From a virus, in IMG/VR virus record IMGVR_UViG_3300025626_001251, positions 1-27,459 of that record: a DNA stretch of 27,459 nt; one strand, 5' to 3'. The notes beneath the pieces are model-generated. The model was not told the origin of the DNA. It made no database searches and saw only the letters and a list, made by a program, of their open reading frames with translations. Made by a program: the position numbers and the translations under genes. Shown here piece by piece: positions 1 through 27,125 of this stretch (within the stretch, counting starts at the first letter, position 1; each line of letters starts with the position of its first letter).

Positions 1-538
1 CATCTAAGAACTCTTGCAAGTGATACATAAGAGCGTCTTCGACTTCAGCTTTGATAGGATGATCAATGGGCACTTCTGGTTCAATAATAGGCACAAGCCC
101 ATAGTCCCAAATAGTACGAGCAAGCGTAAATTGTTGTTTGAGTACAGGATGTACCATTCCTGTACCGTGTACAATACTACGCATCTTGGTGCCGTAGATT
201 TTAGGACCAATGCCGTTAGTAGCCCATTCTAGCATTTGCTTTACTGGAAACTGTTTGAGTGTTCCATCAGCATCACATCCGCTATCAATCTTTAGGAACG
301 TGTCAATACCTTTTTCATCCAAGATGTTAACCATGCCACGTGTGACTGTGTCTTGGTAGAGGATTGCTCCCCAGATGTTTGAGTCGTTGAAGTCAGGACT
401 GTTGACCATTCTAAGACGCATAGCATGAACTTTCTCCATCTTGTCTGCTTCTGTGTATTCTTGTCCGTAGCGTTCTAGTACGCCTCCGGTGCTACCACCA
501 CTGTGATCCATTGCTGCTATAAATCTGTGATCACTCAT
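1..538 (-). CDS. fda: Class I fructose-bisphosphate aldolase (partial, C-terminus outside window)
   Basis: The first 179 codons read as a bacterial class I fructose-1,6-bisphosphate aldolase, which interconverts fructose-1,6-bisphosphate with dihydroxyacetone phosphate and glyceraldehyde-3-phosphate through a lysine Schiff base. Visible family motifs are DHSGGSTGG (residues 11-19), FLKID (81-85), GTKMRS (116-121) and GLVPIIEPEV (147-156). The Schiff-base lysine of this family lies further on, in an LKxTIP-type segment, and is not in this window, so catalytic competence cannot be judged. The ATG at 538 follows GGAGA with 5 bases between and overlaps the end of the HAD-like gene by 8 bases, so the two are probably translationally coupled. 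It is last visible in the exonuclease-MazG-HAD operon. Family assignment is from remembered motifs; a class I aldolase is unusual cargo for a T4-like phage. Confidence 0.88.
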   Translation of the reverse strand, partial: MSDHRFIAAMDHSGGSTGGVLERYGQEYTEADKMEKVHAMRLRMVNSPDFNDSNIWGAILYQDTVTRGMVNILDEKGIDTFLKIDSGCDADGTLKQFPVKQMLEWATNGIGPKIYGTKMRSIVHGTGMVHPVLKQQFTLARTIWDYGLVPIIEPEVPIDHPIKAEVEDALMYHLQEFLD

Positions 539-869
539 ACGATTCTCCAGTTTCGCGAAAGAAGTTTTCACTCCAGAATGCTTTGTCGTCAATCCAGATG
601 TCATAGTTTTCTTTTTCGCCTACGCTTAGTTCGTGGTGCTTTGCACCCCACTTCATTAGCTGTGCATATGTAAGTTCAAAATAGTCTACACCGCTTACAC
701 ATCCGCGAGCTGTCATATACTTAATAGTATGTCCTGCATCATACAATGCATTTACTTTTGCAATACGCTCGGGCATCGGAATGTGATTAGCGTAGTCTTT
801 CTTTCCACCACTGTCAGGAATAATAACTTCCTTACAAATAGTACCGTCAATATCAATTACATATTTCAA
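531..869 (-). CDS. HAD-like phosphatase
   Basis: A 112-residue protein with the N-terminal HAD signature IDIDGT: D6 would be the nucleophile and D8 the acid/base. A motif II-like threonine is in YMTARG near residue 55, and the distal acidic motif is IWIDDKAF near residues 91-98. The size fits a minimal capless HAD phosphatase such as those acting on sugar phosphates or polynucleotide 3'-phosphates; the substrate cannot be read from the sequence. The start must be TTG at 869, because an in-frame TAA immediately precedes it and no ATG comes before the catalytic motif; GGAG lies 8 bases upstream. It overlaps the MazG-like gene by 17 bases and the aldolase by 8, so the three are probably co-translated. 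A link to the aldolase's sugar-phosphate pool is inference only. Confidence 0.82.
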   Translation of the reverse strand: MKYVIDIDGTICKEVIIPDSGGKKDYANHIPMPERIAKVNALYDAGHTIKYMTARGCVSGVDYFELTYAQLMKWGAKHHELSVGEKENYDIWIDDKAFWSENFFRETGESYE

Positions 870-1691: not shown

Positions 1692-1720
1692 ATACTACGG
1701 CATGATCTTCTTAATGTCAA
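1692..1720 (-). promoter_or_regulatory. sigma70-type promoter for the exonuclease-aldolase operon
   Basis: On the minus strand TTGACA (1720-1715) is separated by exactly 17 bases from TAGTAT (1697-1692). The -35 is perfect and the -10 matches four of six positions. The predicted transcript start lies near 1685, giving a leader of about 28 bases that contains AGGAAG before ATG 1657. The site overlaps the last codons of the radical SAM gene. Confidence 0.6.
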
Positions 1721-2606
1721 GAACTATATTTTCTTTTTTTCCAGTATTAATAGGGCATAGTTTGCATTGTTCTATACTATGTGATAACCCTTGTATTTGC
1801 TGTGCAAGATTATTCGATAACGGGTTAACGGGTCTGTAACTTTTGTATAACTCTTTATCTTCTTGCTGCACATTATATCTATCTACAAATGCTTGAGCAC
1901 CTACCACTGTTCCGCATTTCCACATGTTACCTTCGTAAATGTACGGACAATCATTGTGCCAGCAAGCATCGTGTGCTGCCTCCCTGTCACTTTTGTAGAA
2001 TTGAAATACTCCGTCCTTTATTTCCTTTACACCCCAAGGCATAAAATCCATTTTGTAGTTTATAATAAAAGCAGGCCAGTCGTCTTTGATTAACAATGCT
2101 TCTTTGTATTCGCAACCTATATGTGTTGCAACACCTTTGATCATATTTGGCGTTGTTACTTTATAACGTTCGTATTTTTTATTAAGTACTCGATCTATTA
2201 CTTCAAACGCCGGTTCAATATGTTTTTCATTATGAAAACTTATTTCTATAGCTATATTATTGTCTAACCATTTTGGTATTTGTTTTTCGTATTTGTGTAG
2301 TAAAGATCCATTTGTAACAACCTTAAAATCTTTTGCATCAAATAACTTACGCATACCCATTAGCCAGTTGTCAAGATCGTTGTTTACAAAGGGTTCGCCG
2401 CCAATAATACAAAAATCATTTACATGTAATTTTTCAGCCCATTGTTGTGCTTGAACTTTATACGTTTCAAAAGTATGATTGCCTTTGATTGCAAAGTTGT
2501 TAAAGTTACTACAGTTATTGCATGTTAAGTTACAACTATGACTAATATACCATTGTAGTGCGTGTACTAAGATTTTTCCATTTTTAAGAATTCTGCCGTT
2601 TAACAT
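1695..2606 (-). CDS. Radical SAM enzyme with C-terminal cysteine cluster
   Basis: A 303-residue radical SAM protein. C25, C29 and C32 form the CxxxCxxC motif that binds the SAM-cleaving [4Fe-4S] cluster, and GGEP at 69-72 is the SAM-binding strand. Further cysteines at 215, 220, 231, 281 and 284 resemble a SPASM/twitch-type auxiliary cluster region, which often goes with peptide- or protein-modifying enzymes. The substrate is unknown. It follows the nitroreductase gene after a 10-base gap, and the pair probably shares the late box at 3259-3266. No strong Shine-Dalgarno sequence precedes ATG 2606, so reinitiation after the nitroreductase stop is plausible. QueE was considered, given the QueD-like gene at the other end of the window, but the length and surrounding sequence do not fit. 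Confidence 0.87.
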   Translation of the reverse strand: MLNGRILKNGKILVHALQWYISHSCNLTCNNCSNFNNFAIKGNHTFETYKVQAQQWAEKLHVNDFCIIGGEPFVNNDLDNWLMGMRKLFDAKDFKVVTNGSLLHKYEKQIPKWLDNNIAIEISFHNEKHIEPAFEVIDRVLNKKYERYKVTTPNMIKGVATHIGCEYKEALLIKDDWPAFIINYKMDFMPWGVKEIKDGVFQFYKSDREAAHDACWHNDCPYIYEGNMWKCGTVVGAQAFVDRYNVQQEDKELYKSYRPVNPLSNNLAQQIQGLSHSIEQCKLCPINTGKKENIVLDIKKIMP

Positions 2607-2616
2607 AAGTTAAAAA

Positions 2617-3240
2617 CTATTTTTGTTCAACTGATATTTGTTGTTTTTTCTTAGTAGGGAATACAAAGTCTTCAGCATGGTGCTCACGTCTTGGACGAGT
2701 TTCGTCTTTGAAACCAATGCCCATTAGCAAATGTACATGCGTGTCAATATCGAGTATTTCTGCAACCTGTGCAGGATCAAAACACGCACAACAACCTGTA
2801 CTATATCCTAACATACTTGCTGTAATATTTGCGTAACCTGCTCCAATGCCAACAGCCATATGTTTGTCTTTCAACAAGTCTTCTGGCTTTTCTAAATCTT
2901 TGCTTGGTACAAATACATCACCGAAGATATTTTCTTTTGGTTCTACATCCGACTCGGCAAATACTACCAACAAATTTGCTAATACTTGGCTGTTTGTAAC
3001 TGTGTCATTTGATCGAAAGTTAGTAATAAAACCATTTGTTGTTTCATATATACGTTCAATCTTGTCTCTATCAGTAACAAATATAACTTTATAATAAGCT
3101 ACGTTTTGTTTGCTAGGGCAATTGGTGACTGCCGTTTTAATCATTTCAATATCTTCATCTGGTATACTTTTACTTAAATCCCAGTTGCGTTGACAATGTT
3201 GACTTCTAATGATTGCTTTTTTAATATCTGACTTGTTCAC
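2617..3240 (-). CDS. Nitroreductase-family flavoprotein
   Basis: A 207-residue protein of the FMN-dependent nitroreductase fold. Family signs are an N-terminal Arg/Ser segment (RSQHCQRNW, 12-20), the FMN-contacting PSKQN (42-46), and a helix KDKHMAVGIGAGYANI (124-139) followed by LGYSTGCC (144-151), corresponding to the conserved region before the C-terminal strand. The family reduces nitro compounds, quinones or flavins with NAD(P)H; some members oxidise azolines in peptide maturation. The start is GTG at 3240: AGGAGA lies 7 bases upstream and no better ATG is near. A late-type CATAAATA box lies 18 bases before the start. Three cysteines in CCACF (150-154) are unusual. Its substrate and its relation to the radical SAM gene downstream are unknown. 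Confidence 0.85.
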   Translation of the reverse strand: MNKSDIKKAIIRSQHCQRNWDLSKSIPDEDIEMIKTAVTNCPSKQNVAYYKVIFVTDRDKIERIYETTNGFITNFRSNDTVTNSQVLANLLVVFAESDVEPKENIFGDVFVPSKDLEKPEDLLKDKHMAVGIGAGYANITASMLGYSTGCCACFDPAQVAEILDIDTHVHLLMGIGFKDETRPRREHHAEDFVFPTKKKQQISVEQK

Positions 3241-3266: not shown

Positions 3267-3618
3267 ATACAAACTGTGCAAGTTCTGGTGCCTTCCAGCC
3301 TTCTGGCTTCAACACCTTGCCGTCTTCACGCTTGCGTACTTTGCCTGTCTCTGCATCAATCTTTGCAAAGTTAGTATCCATTACTTCTTTCCAGGCTGCT
3401 TCGCCATCCCAGCCTGCTGCACGAATAGCACCAATAGTAACAACTAGGATATCAACTAGTGCGTCTAGTTGTTCTACTTTATCATTTGCTGCTACTGCAT
3501 CTACCAGCTCTCCAAATTCTTCGTCAATGAGACTAAGATACATTTTGTAGTTTTCAGGGCTTGCTGGCTGATCACATGCTGTTCCGAATGTTTCAATGTC
3601 TTTAAATACGTTTGTCAT
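3262..3618 (-). CDS. MazG-superfamily pyrophosphohydrolase (PRA-PH-like)
   Basis: A 118-residue all-alpha NTP pyrophosphatase-like protein. The acidic pairs are DEEFGE (32-37) and QLDALVDILV (50-59), followed by GAIRAAGWD and a segment running from EVMDTNFAKI to GWKAPELAQF that is typical of the HisE/PRA-PH-like phage and bacterial proteins. It probably hydrolyses a nucleotide triphosphate to monophosphate and pyrophosphate; the natural substrate is not evident. It differs clearly from the first MazG-like protein (853-1140), so this is not a recent duplication. Its ATG overlaps the co-chaperonin stop as TAATG, so translation is coupled. Confidence 0.85.
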   Translation of the reverse strand: MTNVFKDIETFGTACDQPASPENYKMYLSLIDEEFGELVDAVAANDKVEQLDALVDILVVTIGAIRAAGWDGEAAWKEVMDTNFAKIDAETGKVRKREDGKVLKPEGWKAPELAQFVS

Positions 3619-4025
3619 TATGCGCCTGCTCCAAATGCTTCTGGTGCGATTGTTGCGTGATCGCCATCGTTGTATGATTTACCAATTTGCACATCGTCTG
3701 GTTTTTTACTATCGTATGCTAAGATACATTCAGCATCTACCATACGTAGTTCTAGCTCTCCCGTGCCTTCGTCGATTTTTACACCTCGAGTCCAGCGCCC
3801 GTGTTCGATTAATACCCAATCTCCGATTTGATATGCTGAATCGTTGTTTGGGCCTTTTGCATGTACTTGACCCCAGCGTGGATAGATGCCACGTGTTGAA
3901 CCGTTATCGTCACTGATAATAAGTCCACTTTTTAGTTTTTGTTCTCCAAAGTACATATTGCTTACGAGTACTCTATCATTAATAGGTTTTAGAGTTCCGT
4001 TGATTGTATTTAGATTTATAGCCAT
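3618..4025 (-). CDS. GroES-like co-chaperonin
   Basis: A 135-residue protein with a GroES fold pattern: KPINDRVLV (13-21) corresponds to the opening strand PLxDRVxV, residues 25-38 to the mobile loop that contacts GroEL (EQKLKSGLII), and WGQVHAKGP (51-59) with GDWVLIEHG (68-76) to the barrel strands. It is longer than bacterial GroES (about 95 residues), with a C-terminal tail of roughly 35 residues. In T4-like phages co-chaperonins such as gp31 work with host GroEL to fold the major capsid protein; that is the likely role. It overlaps its neighbours on both sides by one base (TAATG), and an AAAGGTGAT ribosome site precedes it. Confidence 0.88.
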   Translation of the reverse strand: MAINLNTINGTLKPINDRVLVSNMYFGEQKLKSGLIISDDNGSTRGIYPRWGQVHAKGPNNDSAYQIGDWVLIEHGRWTRGVKIDEGTGELELRMVDAECILAYDSKKPDDVQIGKSYNDGDHATIAPEAFGAGA

Positions 4026-4435
4026 TAATCACCTTTGTTTATAAAATTGCCATCTTCGTCTTCAACCCATTTGTCTTCAACTGGATCAGACTTTGGTTTT
4101 GTAGTTTGTTTTGGTTGAGCTGTTGCTTTGGGCTTTGCTGGAATCACTTCTTCATCGAGTGCTACCAGTTCCTCTGCTTCAGCTTGTGATAGTCCTTCTA
4201 ACTTTGCAGCACTTTCATGTTGTACTGGTTCACTTCCACTGCTGTAATATTCCTTTACAACTTCTTCTCTTTTGCGAATAATCTTGCCGCCTGGGCCAAG
4301 CTCATCGCCTCTTGCATTAACTCTGGCATTGCCAACAGCCGGAGTTAGTTCATTTCGTTTAATCAACATATCTAAGTCTACAACTTTGCCTTGCATACTT
4401 CTATATGTCTTACGGCTTTTTTGTCTTGATGCCAT
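4025..4435 (-). CDS. Conserved T4-like phage protein of unknown function
   Basis: A 136-residue protein whose function I cannot name. Residues 1-65 are basic and strongly patterned (KTYRSMQGK, NELTPAVGNARVNARGDE, GPGGKIIRKREEVVKEYY), which I recall as conserved among marine T4-like phages. The remainder is low-complexity, rich in Glu, Pro, Lys and Gln, and ends in an acidic tail (WVEDEDGNF). This looks like a small nucleic-acid-binding or structural protein with a disordered C-terminus, but no catalytic motif is visible. AAGGAGA lies 5 bases before ATG 4435. It is first in a coupled trio with the co-chaperonin and MazG-like genes. Confidence 0.7.
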   Translation of the reverse strand: MASRQKSRKTYRSMQGKVVDLDMLIKRNELTPAVGNARVNARGDELGPGGKIIRKREEVVKEYYSSGSEPVQHESAAKLEGLSQAEAEELVALDEEVIPAKPKATAQPKQTTKPKSDPVEDKWVEDEDGNFINKGD

Positions 4436-4447
4436 TCGTTTCTCCTT

Positions 4448-4476
4448 ATATTATTATTACTTATGACATATGTCAA
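4448..4476 (-). promoter_or_regulatory. Possible sigma70-type promoter with palindromic -35 region
   Basis: On the minus strand TTGACA (4476-4471), 17 bases, then TAATAT (4453-4448). The 12-base palindrome TGACATATGTCA (4464-4475) covers the -35 and could be an operator. A problem is that the expected start point, near 4441, falls inside the Shine-Dalgarno sequence AAGGAGA (4447-4441), so either initiation is displaced or the match is accidental. The palindrome also encodes the last residues of the upstream protein. Confidence 0.35.
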
Positions 4477-6331
4477 GTGGTTTTTTAGTTTTTGATGCAG
4501 TACATTTCCAATACCCACTTTTACGATTCCAATGATATGCTTTATTATACCATTGATTGTCTGCAATATTGTTGTCTTCGTGATCAATTATAATAGTATC
4601 ACTATCTATATTTAACATATCATATGCTACATCACGAGTTGTTTTAGTTTGTATAGGATATTTTAGATCTCGCGACCGGCACATTAATAACCCAAGTTGT
4701 ACAATGCTTTTAACTTTCCAGGGTGCTACATTGGTCTTTTCATTCATAAACTTTATAAGTTCATTTTCTAAACGTGTTACATTATTATGTAGTACAATAC
4801 TACTTGCGCCTTTGTACTCCCAAAATATATCATTGTTGCCTAATACTTGTCTGCCCCATAATTCATTATTATTATAAACATTATATAACGATTGTTTTGT
4901 TTCGCTGTACTCCTTGTATAATAATGTTTGGGTATTTTCTTTAATCCATTGCAACAAATCTTCAAACAACTCTGTTTCTAATACGCCTTGCTTACGCATA
5001 TATTTTGCAATATAATGTCCCCAACCGTAATAATACATTAGTATAGTAAGCCAAGCATACATATGTCCTTCAATTACAGTATCGTGATTGGCTGTACTTG
5101 TACTGTATACTGCATCTGTATATTCCATAATATAATTATCTGTTGCACCTAAATAAACAGTATCAAGTGGTATACTACGAACATCGAGCCCGTGTTGTTT
5201 TTGATATGCTTTATTACCCATAGGAGAGTTATCAGTTACAACAAGTGGATGTATCATTAGATAGTTATCCTGTCCCATATCAATCAACTGTTGTATACCT
5301 TGTTTTAAACTATTGTATGTTTCATTAGGTAACGGCCATATCAATTCGCTGTACGTAGGAATATTATTTTCTTTGTATTTTGTAAAATAAGTTTTAAACT
5401 TTTCAAAGTCTAGATTAAATCTATCAATTGATTCTAGTGTAGTATCATTAAAACTTTGTAGTGCAACAGTAATACCTTTAAAAATATTTGTGCTAGAGTT
5501 TTGATTTTGCATTGCTATTTCAAAGTTACGTTCAATGTTGTTTTTACTCCATGTGGCGTCAAACCACATAGGATATCCATATTTTTCTTTTGTCTTTAAC
5601 ACGCAATCAGTTAGTTCTTTGTCACGTTCTAACAATCCCCAGTTGCTATCGCATACACTTACATACTCGATGCGATTTTTACCCATCCACTCGATTTCTG
5701 CTTTACAACGTTCTGTATCAAACAATGTTAGTTTATTCCAATAGCTTTCACCAATGTCACAAAAACTACAATGATATGGACAACCCCGTAAACTTTCCCA
5801 AGTTACTTGCCACATAGTGTCTTTGGGATACTTTGCCATAATAGGTTCATAAAAACCTTCCAATATTGGCGATGGTATATCTTTTAAACTACGCAGACGT
5901 TGTGCTGCATTAGGCATATGTGTCGGTGTTTGTACATGCGGAATATTATCGTATGCTCCTAGCGGACGATCGAGTATTTCTTTAAATGCTTGCTCGCCTT
6001 CACCATGTACTGCTACATCAAAATAAGGGTGTTTGTTAAAAAAATCTTTATCATGTTTGGTTACTTGTGGGCCGCCGACAACTATTATACATTGCGGATA
6101 TGTTTGTTTAATAGTTTGTGCTAATACTTTATTGTATTCCCAGTTCCATACATAGCAACTCATTGCTACTATTTGTGGGTTGTCAAAACAATAGTCTAGT
6201 GGTTTTTCAATAATAACATCTTTTAATGTCCAGTTATCATTTTTACCATAGCACCATTGATATGCTATTGCAAGTGGTAAAAACTTATTTGGTCCATGAT
6301 TATCACTTGCTTGAACAAGGTAGATATTCAT
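4457..6331 (-). CDS. B12-binding-type radical SAM protein
   Basis: A 624-residue protein with the layout of class B radical SAM enzymes. An N-terminal Rossmann-like cobalamin-binding-type domain (about 1-125) contains VVGGPQ (84-89) and HGEGEQAF (109-116). A radical SAM barrel follows with C184, C188 and C191 (LRGCPYHCSFC). About 300 C-terminal residues, rich in Tyr, Asn and Trp, show no domain I recognise. The classic DxHxxG base-off motif is absent. Such proteins often methylate or rearrange unactivated carbons; the substrate here is unknown. ATG 6331 is chosen because it forms an ATGA overlap with the pol III alpha-like gene; the frame is open to 6349. The gene is very AT-rich: 14 of 60 bases are G or C at 4861-4920. 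Confidence 0.85.
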   Translation of the reverse strand: MNIYLVQASDNHGPNKFLPLAIAYQWCYGKNDNWTLKDVIIEKPLDYCFDNPQIVAMSCYVWNWEYNKVLAQTIKQTYPQCIIVVGGPQVTKHDKDFFNKHPYFDVAVHGEGEQAFKEILDRPLGAYDNIPHVQTPTHMPNAAQRLRSLKDIPSPILEGFYEPIMAKYPKDTMWQVTWESLRGCPYHCSFCDIGESYWNKLTLFDTERCKAEIEWMGKNRIEYVSVCDSNWGLLERDKELTDCVLKTKEKYGYPMWFDATWSKNNIERNFEIAMQNQNSSTNIFKGITVALQSFNDTTLESIDRFNLDFEKFKTYFTKYKENNIPTYSELIWPLPNETYNSLKQGIQQLIDMGQDNYLMIHPLVVTDNSPMGNKAYQKQHGLDVRSIPLDTVYLGATDNYIMEYTDAVYSTSTANHDTVIEGHMYAWLTILMYYYGWGHYIAKYMRKQGVLETELFEDLLQWIKENTQTLLYKEYSETKQSLYNVYNNNELWGRQVLGNNDIFWEYKGASSIVLHNNVTRLENELIKFMNEKTNVAPWKVKSIVQLGLLMCRSRDLKYPIQTKTTRDVAYDMLNIDSDTIIIDHEDNNIADNQWYNKAYHWNRKSGYWKCTASKTKKPLDICHK

Positions 6332-6858
6332 CTTAAAAACTCTTGCCAATCTAAATCATATTTTATACTATCAATTCTGTGTACACCTATCAAGTATAGT
6401 ACATAACTTGCTACACTACTACCTCTACCTACACCCCATACAATATTGTTTTCACTCATAAAGTCTACTAAGTAGATCATATACTGCAATAACGGAAACA
6501 TATCACGTGCTTCATATTCTCTAAGTTCTTCCCATATACGATCTTGCACAGGTTGCTCGCAAGGTATATGTGCTTTGCCTAATACATACTCGTATACATT
6601 TATATTCTTATATTCATCAGGCATAAACCATTCTGACTGTAACGCACCGTCAAAAGTCTTTTGATCTACATCTAATGGAATATATTGTTTAAGTTCAGGT
6701 AGGTATTGTTCACGCATTGCTGCGTTAAACTTTTCAATATCATCACTTGGATCACATAATACAACATGACACTTGTCAACATGACCACTATAGATCATAT
6801 CAACTAAGTCTTTGTTTGTAAATCGTGGGATACCGAGTTCGTCTGTTTTCATAAGCAT
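6328..6858 (-). CDS. DNA polymerase III alpha-like fragment
   Basis: A 176-residue protein whose last third matches the bacterial DNA polymerase III alpha subunit: GVGRGSSVAS (142-151) is the GxGRGSxxxS motif, and DSIKYDLDWQEFLR (163-176) corresponds to the DPLxYDLLFERFL block. In PolC/DnaE the catalytic PDxDxD motif follows a few residues later, but here the protein stops, so it cannot be a polymerase by itself. Similar orphan fragments occur in marine T4-like phages; their function is not known to me. Residues 1-135 have no recognised domain. Start ATG 6858 (M3 at 6852 is an alternative); no ribosome site is visible. A promoter at 6865-6893 would put the RNA start at or next to the ATG. The stop overlaps the radical SAM gene as ATGA. 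Confidence 0.8.
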   Translation of the reverse strand: MLMKTDELGIPRFTNKDLVDMIYSGHVDKCHVVLCDPSDDIEKFNAAMREQYLPELKQYIPLDVDQKTFDGALQSEWFMPDEYKNINVYEYVLGKAHIPCEQPVQDRIWEELREYEARDMFPLLQYMIYLVDFMSENNIVWGVGRGSSVASYVLYLIGVHRIDSIKYDLDWQEFLR

Positions 6859-6864
6859 ACACTT

Positions 6865-6893
6865 ATTTTAACTTACATTGATTAGATCGTCAA
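6865..6893 (-). promoter_or_regulatory. sigma70-type promoter for the pol III alpha-like/radical SAM pair
   Basis: On the minus strand TTGACG (6893-6888), 17 bases, then TAAAAT (6870-6865): five of six matches in each hexamer with ideal spacing. It lies within the last codons of the small upstream gene. The expected RNA start, 6-7 bases after the -10, coincides with the ATG at 6858, so the message may be leaderless. Confidence 0.55.
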
Positions 6894-7101
6894 GTGAATT
6901 ATCGCCTTGTTGCTGCTGTTTTATTTTAGCAGCAGCATAACGTGATTCTAGTTCCAGTTTGTAGCTGTCTATTAGCAAAATCATTTGCTCGTGCATATCT
7001 GGGTTCTGCGTTCCAAAGTACATGCTGTTCAACTTGAGCAATCGTTGCTCAAGTTGCATGGTTGTGTATTCTGCTAAGTTTTTATCATGTGGATGTATCA
7101 T
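6868..7101 (-). CDS. Small helical phage protein of unknown function
   Basis: A 77-residue protein, mostly predicted helix, with heptad-like runs of Leu/Met (QLEQRLLKLNSMYF; MILLIDSYKLELESRYAAA) followed by a Gln-rich stretch and an acidic end. No enzymatic motif is visible. Its ATG overlaps the stop of the preceding appendage gene as ATGA, so it is translated with a virion gene and probably belongs to the late transcript starting near 7720. A role as a small virion or assembly factor is inference. Confidence 0.7.
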   Translation of the reverse strand: MIHPHDKNLAEYTTMQLEQRLLKLNSMYFGTQNPDMHEQMILLIDSYKLELESRYAAAKIKQQQQGDNSLDDLINVS

Positions 7102-24563: not shown

Positions 24564-25610
24564 TTATGCTGCCATTTCTGTAAACCCGCCAGTATTAATA
24601 ATATGACGGTCTAGTAGTTGTCTGCTTGCTAAGTTCTTACACTTTGCCTCTACCATAATATCAGCCCACTGCCAATGCGATAGTGCCCAGTCATTGACTG
24701 CATCATTCCACATGTAATCTGAGTGTGCTCTTAGTTTTCCTTTTTTGAAGCCTTGTTCCGTAAGCGCCGCAAAGTCCGGTCTTTGTGTTGCTGAGTAACT
24801 GGAAAGAAGATCTTCTCTACTACAACTAAAATGCATAGCAGGCCGAACGCCGCGCCAACTAGCCACAACACGTTTGATTCTATCATCATTGGGTTCAATA
24901 TATTCTCCTTCTCGACACCAATGGTGATGGATGTCTAGCACCAGAGCGAGATCGTTTGCAAGCTCAAGACTGTCTCCAATTCCCCATTTGTTTTCGTCGT
25001 TCTCGATTGTAATAGTGTTTCTTGCCTCCGGTGAGAGACGTTTAAGCGCGGCCTTGATACCGGCTGGACCTTGGCGGCCTGAGATGTGTACGTTGCACTT
25101 GAAGTCTTGAAACTTGCGGCCGTAGCCCATCCACCTAATGAGATTTGCATGATATTCAAACTCCTCTATTGATCTTTCCACGATTTCCGGAGTGTCCGAT
25201 GCGAGGACAACAAATTGTCCGGGATGCATCGAAAGTCGCACATCAAGGGCTCTTGCCGCGTCACCAACTGCACCATAGTGCTTCTCACAGTATGCCAACA
25301 CGTCAGGCTTACTCCAAAAATAGCGCCAATCAGGATGGGTAGCACAAGGAAGCTGATTACTACCAAGTCTAACCATTCGAAGTTCTGGAGCAAGGCTTCC
25401 AACATATTCTACTAACCTTTTTGCTGCGGCTGCATTGTGTTCCATAATGTCCCAAAGTCGCTGTTCTGCTACTTCGGTAGTTTGTCTATTTAGCCACTGT
25501 ACTGTTGTACTGCGTTCTGTAAGCGGCCGCTGAATTTCTTCTAGTATTTTTTTCTTCTGTGTTTGGTCTTCGTGCAAGTATTTACATGCAAAGCCTATAC
25601 GTTTGATCAT
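24564..25610 (-). CDS. uvsE: UV damage endonuclease (UvsE/UvdE)
   Basis: A 348-residue UV damage endonuclease, a TIM-barrel enzyme that nicks DNA 5' to pyrimidine dimers and other lesions in a light-independent repair pathway. Metal-site residues expected for the family are visible: H129 in LSMHPGQF, H175 in CNVHISG, E203 in TITIENDE, D226 and H228/H229 in LVLDIHHHW, H260 in AMHFS, H296 in RAHSDYMW and E321 in IMVEAKCK. Length is normal. Parts are markedly GC-richer than the neighbours (38 of 60 bases at 25021-25080), suggesting a different origin. A strong sigma70-type promoter lies at 25642-25670, so the gene can be expressed apart from the genes before it. Confidence 0.92.
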   Translation of the reverse strand: MIKRIGFACKYLHEDQTQKKKILEEIQRPLTERSTTVQWLNRQTTEVAEQRLWDIMEHNAAAAKRLVEYVGSLAPELRMVRLGSNQLPCATHPDWRYFWSKPDVLAYCEKHYGAVGDAARALDVRLSMHPGQFVVLASDTPEIVERSIEEFEYHANLIRWMGYGRKFQDFKCNVHISGRQGPAGIKAALKRLSPEARNTITIENDENKWGIGDSLELANDLALVLDIHHHWCREGEYIEPNDDRIKRVVASWRGVRPAMHFSCSREDLLSSYSATQRPDFAALTEQGFKKGKLRAHSDYMWNDAVNDWALSHWQWADIMVEAKCKNLASRQLLDRHIINTGGFTEMAA

Positions 25611-25673: not shown

Positions 25674-25874
25674 TTAATGCTGAACACCATTGATGATATC
25701 ATCAAGTGCTTTAATAGCTACTGTATGATGTAAGTTTTCACCCCATGTTTCACAATAGTCTTTGCCTGCTGCATCAGCAAGTTCTTTGCTGCTGTAAACA
25801 CCATGGAACCTATTTCGTTCTGGATGTCCTGTATTGTATGTGTGTACAATATAAATGTTAGTTGTTGTGTTCAT
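25674..25874 (-). CDS. Small conserved phage protein of unknown function (66 aa)
   Basis: A 66-residue protein of the form beta-(IYIVHTYNT)-loop-(FHGVYSSKELADAAGKDYCE)-beta, ending in a short helix (ALDDIINGV). The GVYSSKELADAA segment resembles small proteins that present one strand and one helix of a ferredoxin-like fold, but I cannot name a function. ATG 25874 forms an ATGA overlap with the glycosyltransferase stop, which is why it is chosen over an in-frame upstream ATG at 25895. Confidence 0.68.
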   Translation of the reverse strand: MNTTTNIYIVHTYNTGHPERNRFHGVYSSKELADAAGKDYCETWGENLHHTVAIKALDDIINGVQH

Positions 25875-26710
25875 CGCCAGTTCTCCTTTACCCAACTGTC
25901 ATTTGCATCTGCAGGATTTGGTTCGCCGTGAAACACTGCAATGCATGTATCTGGATGTATTTTAGGTGGTGCATCAATTGTAAAGTTACGTTTGCGTCTT
26001 TCATCAAGTTTGAGATCGCGCCTATCACGCATTTCCCATTTGTAACTCATTATCCATTCGTCTGGCCAAAAAACATGATCCTTGATATGTTTGTACATCC
26101 AGTCTTGATCTCCTCGTAGTCGTAATGTTTCAGTGCGAGGATTTTTTTTAAACTGCTGCCAAAAGTTATCATATTGCCCTATTTCTACACGAAACACACT
26201 GCTGTTCATATGTGTCCATGTTGGGCGCTGAGTTCTATTAAAGTCTCTAATGATATTAAACTTTTTAGGGGCGCAAGTAAACAGTTTATCAATATTGTTA
26301 AACACAATCACATCTAAATCTAAAAACAACAACGTGCCGTTAATAGGCAAGTCAGCACCAACAAACATTGGTTTGTACCACCAACCATCTGCTTGTATTT
26401 TTGGCAACGGATATGTTTTAATATTTTTATCTATGCCTTTAGGATCTTCAGTAAAGCACACAAACTCATATGGTATAGTTATATTACGATTGACCATACT
26501 GTATAGTTTGTTTACATATTCTGCACTATACTTGGTGCCCCATTTTAAACATGCTACATAGTTCTTAGAAGATAATAGGGCTACATCTAGCAACCCTATT
26601 TCTTGGTCAAGTTGCGCTAGTTCAGTTAAGGCTTTCTCACGAGCCTTCCTTGCTTTACGCACTTGTTTAGTTTCAGTCCACTGCTTTGTAGATTGCACTG
26701 TTTGCTCCAT
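25871..26710 (-). CDS. Glycosyltransferase (GT-A type, DxD motif)
   Basis: A protein of about 279 residues. The N-terminal 40 or so are charged and helical (RKARKAREKALTELAQ), followed by a GT-A-like domain starting at VACLKWGTKYSAEYVNKLY, with the metal- and nucleotide-sugar-binding DxD in LLFLDLDVIVF (D131 and D133) and HGEPNP near the C-terminus. It would transfer a sugar from a nucleotide sugar; candidates are modified phage DNA, a virion protein or host glycan. A GTG at 26719 would extend it by three residues; ATG 26710 is preferred on codon grounds, although neither has a clear ribosome site. It starts within the end of the QueD-like gene and overlaps the 66-residue gene, so the three form one coupled unit. 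Confidence 0.82.
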   Translation of the reverse strand: MEQTVQSTKQWTETKQVRKARKAREKALTELAQLDQEIGLLDVALLSSKNYVACLKWGTKYSAEYVNKLYSMVNRNITIPYEFVCFTEDPKGIDKNIKTYPLPKIQADGWWYKPMFVGADLPINGTLLFLDLDVIVFNNIDKLFTCAPKKFNIIRDFNRTQRPTWTHMNSSVFRVEIGQYDNFWQQFKKNPRTETLRLRGDQDWMYKHIKDHVFWPDEWIMSYKWEMRDRRDLKLDERRKRNFTIDAPPKIHPDTCIAVFHGEPNPADANDSWVKENWR

Positions 26711-27125
26711 GTTCTGCACATTCTACTTCTACGCACCAGCAACGATTGTCTGTTGCTTCGCGGATTAGTTTATCTGCAAACTTCCAAGCGTGATATGCAA
26801 ACATCTCTGCACCAACACCGTCCATTACTACAACTTCACACAGTCCCATATTCTCAAGTTCTGCAAACTTGTACAAGAATGGATCTTGTCTGTCAATAAC
26901 AGTCTTGTGATCAAAGTTATCTTCTAGCCATGCCTTCAACGGTTTTAGTCCGCCAAAGTCTACTGCCCAGTTTTTGTTGTCAAGTTCACTACATCCAAAT
27001 GTAAACTTGAAGCCTAAGCTATAACCATGTAAGAATTTGCAATGCGAGTGATCTGCATGTGGTTGTCGGAACACTGCTGATAAGCCGATCTGGTGTCCGT
27101 ATGTTTTAGTCGAATAGTAAGCCAT
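26673..27125 (-). CDS. queD: QueD-like 6-pyruvoyl/6-carboxy-tetrahydropterin synthase
   Basis: A 150-residue member of the PTPS/QueD family, which converts dihydroneopterin triphosphate to 6-carboxytetrahydropterin (deazapurine branch) or 6-pyruvoyltetrahydropterin. Visible: the presumed catalytic C29 in SHCKFLHGYS, WAVDFGGLK (53-61), FDHKTVI (71-77) and the pterin-anchoring E138 with N142 and Y146 in AEHGANSAIY. Of the three usual zinc histidines, only H33 is clear: the first position aligns with F19 and HGH is replaced by HGY (Y35). In phages this family can feed 7-deazaguanine DNA modification, but no other gene of that pathway is visible here. AAGGAG precedes ATG 27125, and a sigma70-type promoter lies upstream. 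Confidence 0.85.
   Translation of the reverse strand: MAYYSTKTYGHQIGLSAVFRQPHADHSHCKFLHGYSLGFKFTFGCSELDNKNWAVDFGGLKPLKAWLEDNFDHKTVIDRQDPFLYKFAELENMGLCEVVVMDGVGAEMFAYHAWKFADKLIREATDNRCWCVEVECAEHGANSAIYKAVD

What the first reader, a model, noticed from the sequence alone, without database searches (positions are those of the whole stretch)
4457..6893. B12-type radical SAM protein translationally coupled to the pol III alpha-like protein
The two share an ATGA overlap and a promoter at 6865-6893. A 624-residue B12-binding radical SAM protein with an unassigned 300-residue C-terminus is large cargo for a phage. Possible targets include nucleic acid bases, the replisome or a small metabolite; none is shown. 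Host cobalamin supply would matter.
Basis: partly seen in the sequence, partly recalled or inferred. Interest (0 to 1): 0.55.

Follow-up and report, generated by a model that had tools for sequence, protein, structure and literature searches.

The report
Phage vitamin-B12 radical enzyme, sugar-linked
A phage carries a vitamin-B12-dependent radical enzyme built like antibiotic-making methyltransferases; it sits beside a DNA-polymerase-like fragment probably only because that spot takes in extra genes, and many of its relatives in other phages sit among genes for building unusual sugars.

Summary
Window 4457-6331 (-) encodes a 624-aa B12-binding radical SAM protein whose ATG overlaps by ATGA the stop of a 176-aa DnaE-like protein (6328-6858, -). 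A TTGAC-N17-TAnnnT promoter at 6893-6865 is conserved in 56 of 56 distinct upstream sequences. The "unassigned" C-terminus is assigned: the AlphaFold2 model matches the cobalamin-dependent C-methyltransferase TokK (Z 36.9, 606 residues) and then CysS.

A replisome link is not supported. The DnaE-like protein ends before the catalytic aspartates and is found in many phages. In 72 of its 80 nearest relatives the next gene is phrog_14844, with no insert; 5 of 80 carry the B12 enzyme there. Elsewhere the B12 gene overlaps or abuts other genes.

Many relatives outside this slot sit with nucleotide-sugar genes, DegT-type aminotransferases or a StrB1-like amidinotransferase. A partner seen in some phages, and in the window (1695-2606, -), folds like SpeY/BtrN dehydrogenases. 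Best explanation: a virus-specific lineage of cobalamin-dependent radical C-methylases tailoring an (amino)sugar or cyclitol of a glycan. Chemistry and substrate are inferred; in the window's own clade the sugar genes are not adjacent.

The parts
4457..6331 (-). B12-binding radical SAM protein, 624 aa (P0001), TokK/CysS-like C-methyltransferase fold
6328..6858 (-). 176-aa DnaE (pol III alpha)-like fragment, phrog_11127; match ends before the catalytic aspartates
6328..6331 (-). ATGA stop/start overlap joining the two genes
   Evidence: in relatives with cargo 16 ATGA and 4 TTGA of 20 distinct ends
6865..6893 (-). sigma70-type promoter TTGACG-17-TAAAAT; predicted +1 at the ATG of the DnaE fragment (leaderless by inference)
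4448..4476 (-). second TTGACA-17-TAATAT inside the C-terminal tail codons of the radical SAM gene, ahead of phrog_14844; by eye in the rows printed it is seen in L002, L003, L005, L007, L008, L059 and not in L006, L009, L011
   Evidence: tail residues 618-624 pLDDT < 50
6868..7101 (-). 77-aa upstream gene whose 3' end carries the promoter
4025..4435 (-). phrog_14844 protein, the next gene after the DnaE fragment in 72 of 80 nearest relatives
3618..4025 (-). GroES-like co-chaperonin (Cpn10 / phrog_931)
1695..2606 (-). second radical SAM protein, 303 aa, twitch-type, SpeY/BtrN-like dehydrogenase fold; relatives overlap the B12 gene in 5 of 59 distinct cases
2617..3240 (-). nitroreductase-family protein, between the MazG-like gene and the twitch radical SAM gene
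25871..26719 (-). glycosyltransferase by PHROG (phrog_1962); possible user of the product, not linked by position
   Evidence: 4.7e-26; no Pfam match

Best explanation
It is a virus-specific lineage of class-1 cobalamin-dependent radical SAM C-methyltransferases (TokK/CysS-like). By analogy, one SAM methylates cob(I)alamin; a second SAM, cleaved at the C184/C188/C191 [4Fe-4S] cluster, yields a 5'-deoxyadenosyl radical that takes a hydrogen from an unactivated carbon, and the substrate radical takes the methyl group from methylcobalamin. The substrate is most likely a sugar, amino sugar or cyclitol on its way into a surface or virion glycan, acted on in some phages together with a SpeY/BtrN-like radical SAM dehydrogenase or, in sister phages, an aminotransferase and a StrB1-like amidinotransferase. 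In this window it is optional cargo in a promoter-driven core operon, between the DnaE fragment and the phrog_14844-GroES block; the ATGA overlap couples its expression to that operon, not its function to replication. Shown: sequence, fold match, cofactor-site residues, genomic contexts. Inferred: activity, substrate, physiological role.
For: TokK: phmmer 1.3e-70, CysS 1.2e-47; profile 9.4e-151 over 17-570 of 629; AlphaFold2 pLDDT 91.1, pTM 0.89; TokK Z 36.9, rmsd 2.4, 606 aligned; CysS Z 31.2; next entry Z 19.2. CxxxCxxC and W62 (= TokK W76 / CysS W75 under the cobalt) in 35 of 35 rows (PMC12846815, PMC13331322, passages read). Context within 8 kb: of 25 distinct 40-59% relatives, amidinotransferase 15, UDP-sugar dehydrogenase 12, mini-DegT 11; of 12 below 40%, UDP-sugar dehydrogenase 7, full DegT 6; Pfam tallies of 127 and 128 neighbours; sugar genes within 10 kb in 5 of 7 long contigs vs 1.25 expected, P 0.0015 (within 6 kb 3 of 7, P 0.038; within 15 kb 5 of 7, P 0.006). 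Amidinotransferase matches StrB1 1bwd 7.6e-97. Twitch partner matches SpeY Z 21.6 and BtrN Z 14.5; other proteins <= 11.8; it directly precedes and overlaps the B12 gene in 5 of 59 distinct cases. Optional cargo.
Against: In the window's own clade no amidinotransferase, DegT or UDP-sugar dehydrogenase lies within 8 kb (0 of 22 distinct); DegT is absent from all four long contigs of the clade, epimerases are in two, 35-38 kb away, the amidinotransferase in one (G012), about 40 kb away. These contigs are incomplete. The twitch partner is not constant: within 8 kb in 8 of 22, 3 of 25 and 0 of 12 distinct cases and in 4 of 12 long records. The mini-DegT/amidinotransferase cassette often does without the B12 enzyme: 9 of 41 amidinotransferase loci have it in the fetched flanks. 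G010 has no epimerase, DegT or amidinotransferase, and ordinary phage genes also occur among the neighbours. The curated KedN5-family score is not reached (219 of 700 bits). The CysS gate residue W271 is Asp in the 23-row viral clade. The closest solved enzymes act on pantetheine-linked substrates, not sugars.
Confidence: 0.5

Rival explanations
1. The enzyme modifies nucleic acid bases or a replisome protein and works with the DnaE-like fragment to which it is coupled.
For: ATGA overlap and shared promoter; linkage in 22 of 22 distinct proteins of one clade; MiaB, an RNA-modifying enzyme, is among weaker fold matches.
Against: 72 of 80 nearest DnaE-fragment loci lack it; 0 of 37 distinct B12 proteins outside the clade have a DnaE fragment on the locus; the B12 gene lies in the same way next to other genes; MiaB Z 15.7 against TokK 36.9.
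Confidence: 0.05
2. It C-methylates a protein or peptide, for example a tail-fibre protein encoded nearby, as MgmA and RiPP C-methylases do.
For: Tail-fibre genes lie upstream, from 12620 on; MgmA is the first structure after TokK and CysS (Z 19.2); weak RiPP-methylase hits.
Against: MgmA matches far less well than TokK; I noticed no constant protein partner, though no search for precursor peptides was made; many sister-clade loci sit by sugar genes.
Confidence: 0.12
3. Secondary-metabolite chemistry as in TokK, CysS and KedN5: methylation of a carrier- or pantetheine-bound small molecule made by phage or host.
For: Closest solved enzymes act on pantetheine-linked substrates (PMC12846815 passages).
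Against: No carrier-protein or synthase family among the 25 most frequent Pfam families shown for either neighbour set, of 57 and 41 matched; CysS gate residue not kept.
Confidence: 0.12
4. A radical SAM enzyme with another reaction (cyclisation, rearrangement, dehydration) on a sugar-like substrate.
For: OxsB (B12-dependent) and the diol dehydratase AprD4, bound to paromamine, share the fold class (Z 18.7 and 18.9).
Against: The full three-domain match is to methylases, over 600 residues; Trp below cobalt as in TokK/CysS.
Confidence: 0.12
5. A host-takeover or defence-related factor: PADLOC model PDC-M51A matches at 6.2e-31.
Against: The library lists it only as a candidate without description, and the match covers the B12/radical SAM core (50-370); TokK matches at 1.3e-70.
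Confidence: 0.05

Closest known systems
TokK and CysS (class-1 cobalamin-dependent radical SAM C-methyltransferases; NCBIfam KedN5 family NF033712)
   Same: Three-domain fold over nearly the whole protein, CxxxCxxC cluster motif, Trp under cobalt
   Different: 24-25% (TokK) and 21-22% (CysS) identity; below the curated family score; Asp258, His361 and Lys507 mark the viral clade; viral; many relatives lie by sugar genes
SpeY / BtrN twitch radical SAM dehydrogenases (partner gene 1695-2606)
   Same: Fold (Z 21.6 / 14.5); cluster cysteines plus four more invariant cysteines in 28 of 28 rows
   Different: 16-18% identity; substrate unknown; viral
StrB1 inosamine-phosphate amidinotransferase (1bwd; the name StrB1 and its pathway are from recall), in sister-clade phages
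   Same: Full-length match 7.6e-97
   Different: Not found in the window; substrate unknown
Radical SAM / amidinotransferase modules of Campylobacter phages CP220 and CPt10 (PMC2853527, passages read)
   Same: Interchangeable module of five radical SAM genes with an amidinotransferase
   Different: No match to the B12 enzyme in these records at E 1e-5; amidinotransferase 23-28% identical
Truncated pol III alpha of phage CBB and RaK2-like phages (PMC5259590 and PMC6102473, passages read; phrog_11127)
   Same: Stand-alone fragment of about 170 aa with the GRGS motif
   Different: In the three regions looked at (GAP32, Paride, XacN1) it lies near a clamp-loader gene with no B12 enzyme annotated beside it
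Pelagimyophage host-recognition cluster (PMC7029224, passages read)
   Same: Tail-fibre region with inserted glycosyltransferase and radical SAM cassettes
   Different: No B12-type methylase is mentioned in the passages read

Membership tests
Class-1 cobalamin-dependent radical SAM methylases (TokK/CysS type) | N-terminal B12-binding Rossmann domain | tested here: met
   Pfam B12-binding 5.8e-11; fold aligned from residue 1
Class-1 cobalamin-dependent radical SAM methylases (TokK/CysS type) | CxxxCxxC cluster motif | tested here: met
   C184, C188, C191 in 35 of 35 rows
Class-1 cobalamin-dependent radical SAM methylases (TokK/CysS type) | Trp under the cobalt (TokK W76, CysS W75) | tested here: met
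   W62 aligns to both, 35 of 35 rows; roles from PMC12846815 and PMC13331322 passages
Class-1 cobalamin-dependent radical SAM methylases (TokK/CysS type) | Third, C-terminal domain | tested here: met
   TokK 606 residues aligned, model range 1-618
KedN5 family NF033712 | Curated score of 700 bits | tested here: not met
   219 bits, 51-371 only
CysS | Gate and substrate residue Trp271 | tested here: not met
   D258 in 23 of 23 rows of the viral clade
Class-1 cobalamin-dependent radical SAM methylases (TokK/CysS type) | Methylcobalamin-dependent C-methylation | not testable with these tools
   needs purified protein
Bacterial DNA polymerase III alpha (6328-6858) | Catalytic aspartates after the GRGS region | tested here: not met
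   match to E. coli alpha ends at its residue 392 and the ORF stops there; position of the aspartates (401, 403) from recall
Bacterial DNA polymerase III alpha (6328-6858) | N-terminal PHP domain | tested here: not met
   176 aa, no PHP match at E 0.1
phrog_11127 | Full-length match | tested here: met
   5.7e-43, 7-176 to 11-171 of 171
Twitch radical SAM dehydrogenases (SpeY/BtrN type), 1695-2606 | Radical SAM core plus one auxiliary cluster site of four cysteines | tested here: met
   C25/C29/C32 and C215/C231/C281/C284 invariant in 28 of 28 rows; four-cysteine ligation of BtrN from PMC9012708 passages; that these four bind one cluster is inferred
Twitch radical SAM dehydrogenases (SpeY/BtrN type), 1695-2606 | Oxidation of a cyclitol or sugar hydroxyl | not testable with these tools
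   fold only

The most novel reading that the evidence does not exclude
Uncultivated T4-like phages carry an aminoglycoside-style tailoring pathway (radical SAM cyclitol or sugar dehydrogenase, small DegT aminotransferase, StrB1-like amidinotransferase and a cobalamin-dependent C-methylase, each phage with its own subset) that builds a C-methylated, possibly guanidinylated sugar or aminocyclitol for a phage-directed glycan, and the window's phage keeps two of its radical SAM steps as cargo in the region of its tail-fibre genes.
Probability: 0.25. Interest if true: 0.78.

Novelty: new variant of a known kind. Interest (0 to 1): 0.5.

Why it matters
Cobalamin-dependent radical methylases are known mainly from antibiotic producers and methanogens (general knowledge); a virus-only lineage with the same architecture would give many natural variants with a changed pocket, and would make infection depend on host cobalamin, SAM and iron-sulphur supply. 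If the sugar reading holds, phages make chemically unusual glycans by radical chemistry, which is directly testable by glycan analysis of infected cells or virions.

Tried and rejected
Replisome or base-modification partner: rejected as the leading idea because 72 of the 80 nearest DnaE-fragment loci have no cargo and the B12 gene lies next to other genes elsewhere.

Cobalamin riboswitch: no Rfam family matched in the window at the gathering threshold.

Close isolate: the B12 protein has only two weak matches (24%) in 50,697 phage records and the twitch partner none, so host and phage genus stay unknown. 'T4-like' rests on gene content only.

Number of cargo insertions: the DnaE-fragment tree is too poorly resolved (5 changes at least, starred branches force only 1).

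Literature: searches listed no paper whose read passages describe a viral TokK/CysS-type enzyme; (7WZV) found none; two searches listed no paper that holds the word SpeY. Passages only were read of PMC9301287, PMC12846815, PMC13331322, PMC7029224, PMC9723712, PMC5332604, PMC5259590, PMC7824862, PMC6102473, PMC9012708, PMC7678222, PMC7150976 and PMC2853527; every other paper, PMC13356809 among them, was seen in a listing only. Subscription literature was not searched.

Cluster 1 merges unlike proteins (epimerases and unknowns); it appears in this report only as 'cluster 1' in the census. The query P0001 was a gapped copy; BLAST ignored the gaps. The cellular neighbours scanned were ten proteins picked by eye from five loci (L108, L110, L201, L202, L206), so they show that such contexts exist, not how common they are; L200, L203, L204 and L205 were read but not scanned.
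Full report
What is there. On the minus strand, ORF 4457-6331 (624 aa from ATG 6331) follows ORF 6328-6858 (176 aa) with an ATGA overlap at 6331-6328. The window is a 27,459-base virus record. Downstream lie phrog_14844, a GroES-like protein, a MazG-like protein, a nitroreductase-family protein and a second radical SAM protein; upstream a 77-aa gene, a 199-aa gene, a 1628-aa protein without PHROG match, and tail-fibre genes from 12620 on.

The polymerase-like protein. It matches phrog_11127 over its full length (5.7e-43) and the pol III alpha domain only over residues 100-175. The alignment to E. coli alpha ends at residue 392, before the catalytic aspartates (their position is from recall). 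It has no PHP match. Sixty-one of 50,697 phage records hold a similar stretch, 16 of them over at least 80% of it; in GAP32, Paride and XacN1 it stands alone near a clamp-loader gene. A truncated 172-aa version was reported for phage CBB (PMC5259590, passage). It is therefore unlikely to be a polymerase by itself; its role is unknown.

The promoter. A scan of this sequence alone finds no more promoter-like sites than shuffles (18 against 16.0, sd 3.8). Comparison decides it: 56 of 56 distinct upstream sequences have TTGAC-N17-TAnnnT; in the 54 from other loci the -10 box ends six bases before the ATG in 53 and five in 1. It overlaps the end of the 77-aa gene, yet in 54 of 54 the Leu codon is CTT and the Asp codon GAC, while a neighbouring Leu codon varies; the -10 box is TAAAAT 38, TAAACT 12, TAATAT 4. 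Identical rows and those too near a contig end were dropped; the rows are related. The predicted start falls on the ATG, so a leaderless message is inferred.

The B12 enzyme. Sequence: TokK 1.3e-70 and CysS 1.2e-47; with a 35-row profile TokK 9.4e-151 over 17-570 of 629 positions. AlphaFold2 gives pLDDT 91.1 and pTM 0.89. Foldseek's first seven rows are TokK and CysS. VIA-align: TokK Z 36.9, rmsd 2.4, 606 aligned; CysS Z 31.2; next entry Z 19.2. So residues 330-624 are the rest of the barrel and the TokK/CysS C-terminal domain. C184, C188, C191 and W62 are kept in 35 of 35 rows; W62 aligns with TokK W76 and CysS W75, which lie under the cobalt. The NCBIfam KedN5 model scores 219 of the 700 bits required, so I do not file it as a member of that curated family. 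There is no PHROG match. Three predicted viral proteins of similar fold, 16-17% identical, are in BFVD.

A viral lineage. IMG/VR scans gave 23 loci and, with a profile, 91 relatives, of which the best 80 (77 loci) were kept. In a 43-row tree, 23 viral rows form one clade (100/100, stem 1.34); the nine DnaE-slot rows (100/98) are sister to 14 others (85/94). The best of 38 cellular loci in a pattern-based scan is 30% identical. Of 398 genomes drawn from the phylum of a Pseudomonadales genome, 19, that genome among them, match at E 1e-60 or better. In the 23-row clade Asp258, His361 and Lys507 are invariant where the other 12 rows mostly have Arg (10), Tyr (11) and Glu (10). This may be a swapped salt bridge; contact was not tested.

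Why it lies beside the DnaE fragment. Of 542 relatives of the DnaE fragment the best 80 were kept. In 72 of 80 the next gene is phrog_14844 within 60 bases; 5 of 80 hold the B12 gene (3 with a twitch radical SAM gene in front), 3 of 80 another 214-223-aa gene. Of 45 distinct cargo-less ends all stop with TAA and 37 have a CAATCCA...TGGATTG hairpin; of 20 distinct cargo ends all stop with TGA (16 ATGA, 4 TTGA) and none has it. All 22 distinct B12 proteins of the >=59% group have the DnaE fragment on the locus, 0 of 37 others do. Of 59 distinct B12 genes the nearest upstream gene is the DnaE fragment in 19, a mini-DegT in 9 (overlapping by 8 bases or abutting), the mixed cluster 1 in 9, the twitch radical SAM in 5, others in 13, none visible in 4. 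Overlap with the gene in front is thus common for this gene and not special to the DnaE fragment.

What it is likely to act on. Neighbours at 12 distant viral loci (127 proteins) include 15 epimerase-type, 8 DegT, 6 UDP-glucose/GDP-mannose dehydrogenase and 2 NeuB proteins; neighbours at 11 mid-distance loci (128 proteins) include 7 epimerase-type, 4 UDP-sugar dehydrogenase, 3 DegT and 12 radical SAM proteins, besides sheath, RecA, reductase and other ordinary genes. In seven long contigs outside the window's clade, 15 of 25 sugar genes lie within 10 kb of the B12 gene, and 5 of 7 contigs have one against 1.25 expected (P 0.0015; within 6 kb 3 of 7, P 0.038). Near 15 of 25 distinct mid-distance proteins is an amidinotransferase that matches StrB1 over its length (7.6e-97; next SxtG 1.1e-57). 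Of 41 viral loci with this amidinotransferase, 29 have the mini-DegT and 9 a B12 enzyme within the fetched flanks, so the B12 step is an addition to that cassette. Five cellular relatives, picked by eye, lie beside glycosyltransferase, carbamoyltransferase, GDP-mannose dehydratase, transketolase or epimerase genes.

The window's partner. The 303-aa radical SAM protein at 1695-2606 models at pLDDT 89.9 and matches the dehydrogenase SpeY (Z 21.6, rmsd 2.8-2.9, 250 aligned) and BtrN (Z 14.5 and 12.6); other proteins are at 11.8 or less. Relatives overlap the B12 gene directly in the DnaE slot (L147, L159, L010) and in two other settings (L160, L168). BtrN oxidises an inosamine hydroxyl (PMC9012708, passages). 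The partner is not constant: within 8 kb in 8 of 22, 3 of 25 and 0 of 12 distinct cases by distance group, and in 4 of 12 long records.

Against this reading. In the window's clade no amidinotransferase, DegT or UDP-sugar dehydrogenase is near the B12 gene (0 of 22). Among four long contigs of the clade, DegT is in none, epimerases in two, 35-38 kb away, the amidinotransferase in one, about 40 kb away. G010, outside the clade, has none of the three. The contigs are incomplete. The TokK and CysS substrates are not sugars. Function of the window's copy is therefore an extrapolation from its sister clade and its partner gene.

Relation to print. Radical-SAM-rich T4-like marine phages (PMC5332604), radical SAM and glycosyltransferase genes in the tail-fibre region of pelagimyophages (PMC7029224), radical SAM plus amidinotransferase modules in Campylobacter phages (PMC2853527) and B12-binding radical SAM enzymes in viruses of methane archaea (PMC9723712) are described; only passages were read. 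I found no report of a viral TokK/CysS-type enzyme in searches; one paper listed was not opened.

Noticed in passing
3' end of the DnaE-fragment gene in cargo-less loci (e.g. L031 727-748): Conserved hairpin CAATCCA...TGGATTG in 37 of 45 distinct cargo-less ends, all with stop TAA; 0 of 20 distinct cargo-bearing ends have it and all 20 stop with TGA.
   Followed up: partly
window 4476-4448 (-): A second TTGACA-17-TAATAT lies in the C-terminal tail codons of the B12 gene, ahead of the downstream core genes; by eye present in some relatives only.
   Followed up: partly
G006 (194,522 b) and G014 (119,006 b): Phage contigs with 13 and 9 radical SAM matches.
   Followed up: no
L161 7304-7990, L172 7404-7994 and relatives: A roughly 200-aa shortened DegT aminotransferase directly before the B12 gene in 9 of 59 distinct cases and near the StrB1-like amidinotransferase in 29 of 41 loci.
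   Followed up: partly
window 6328-6858 against L028: The DnaE fragment is 95% identical to that of a cargo-less phage while adjacent core genes are only 46-79% identical, a sign of mosaic exchange at this slot.
   Followed up: no
B12 protein positions 258, 361, 507: Asp, His and Lys mark the viral clade where other rows mostly have Arg, Tyr and Glu.
   Followed up: no
window 24564-25610 (-): phrog_8420 endonuclease, about 45% identical to proteins some of which are annotated as UV-damage endonuclease in large phages.
   Followed up: no
window 26673-27125 and 2-604 (-): QueD-like protein and, at the left edge, a weak class-I fructose-bisphosphate aldolase match below the Pfam cut-off.
   Followed up: no
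L052 5528-6172, L069 5510-6181, L104 5528-6172: Another 214-223-aa gene occupies the same slot after the DnaE fragment; the L052 copy has no Pfam match.
   Followed up: partly
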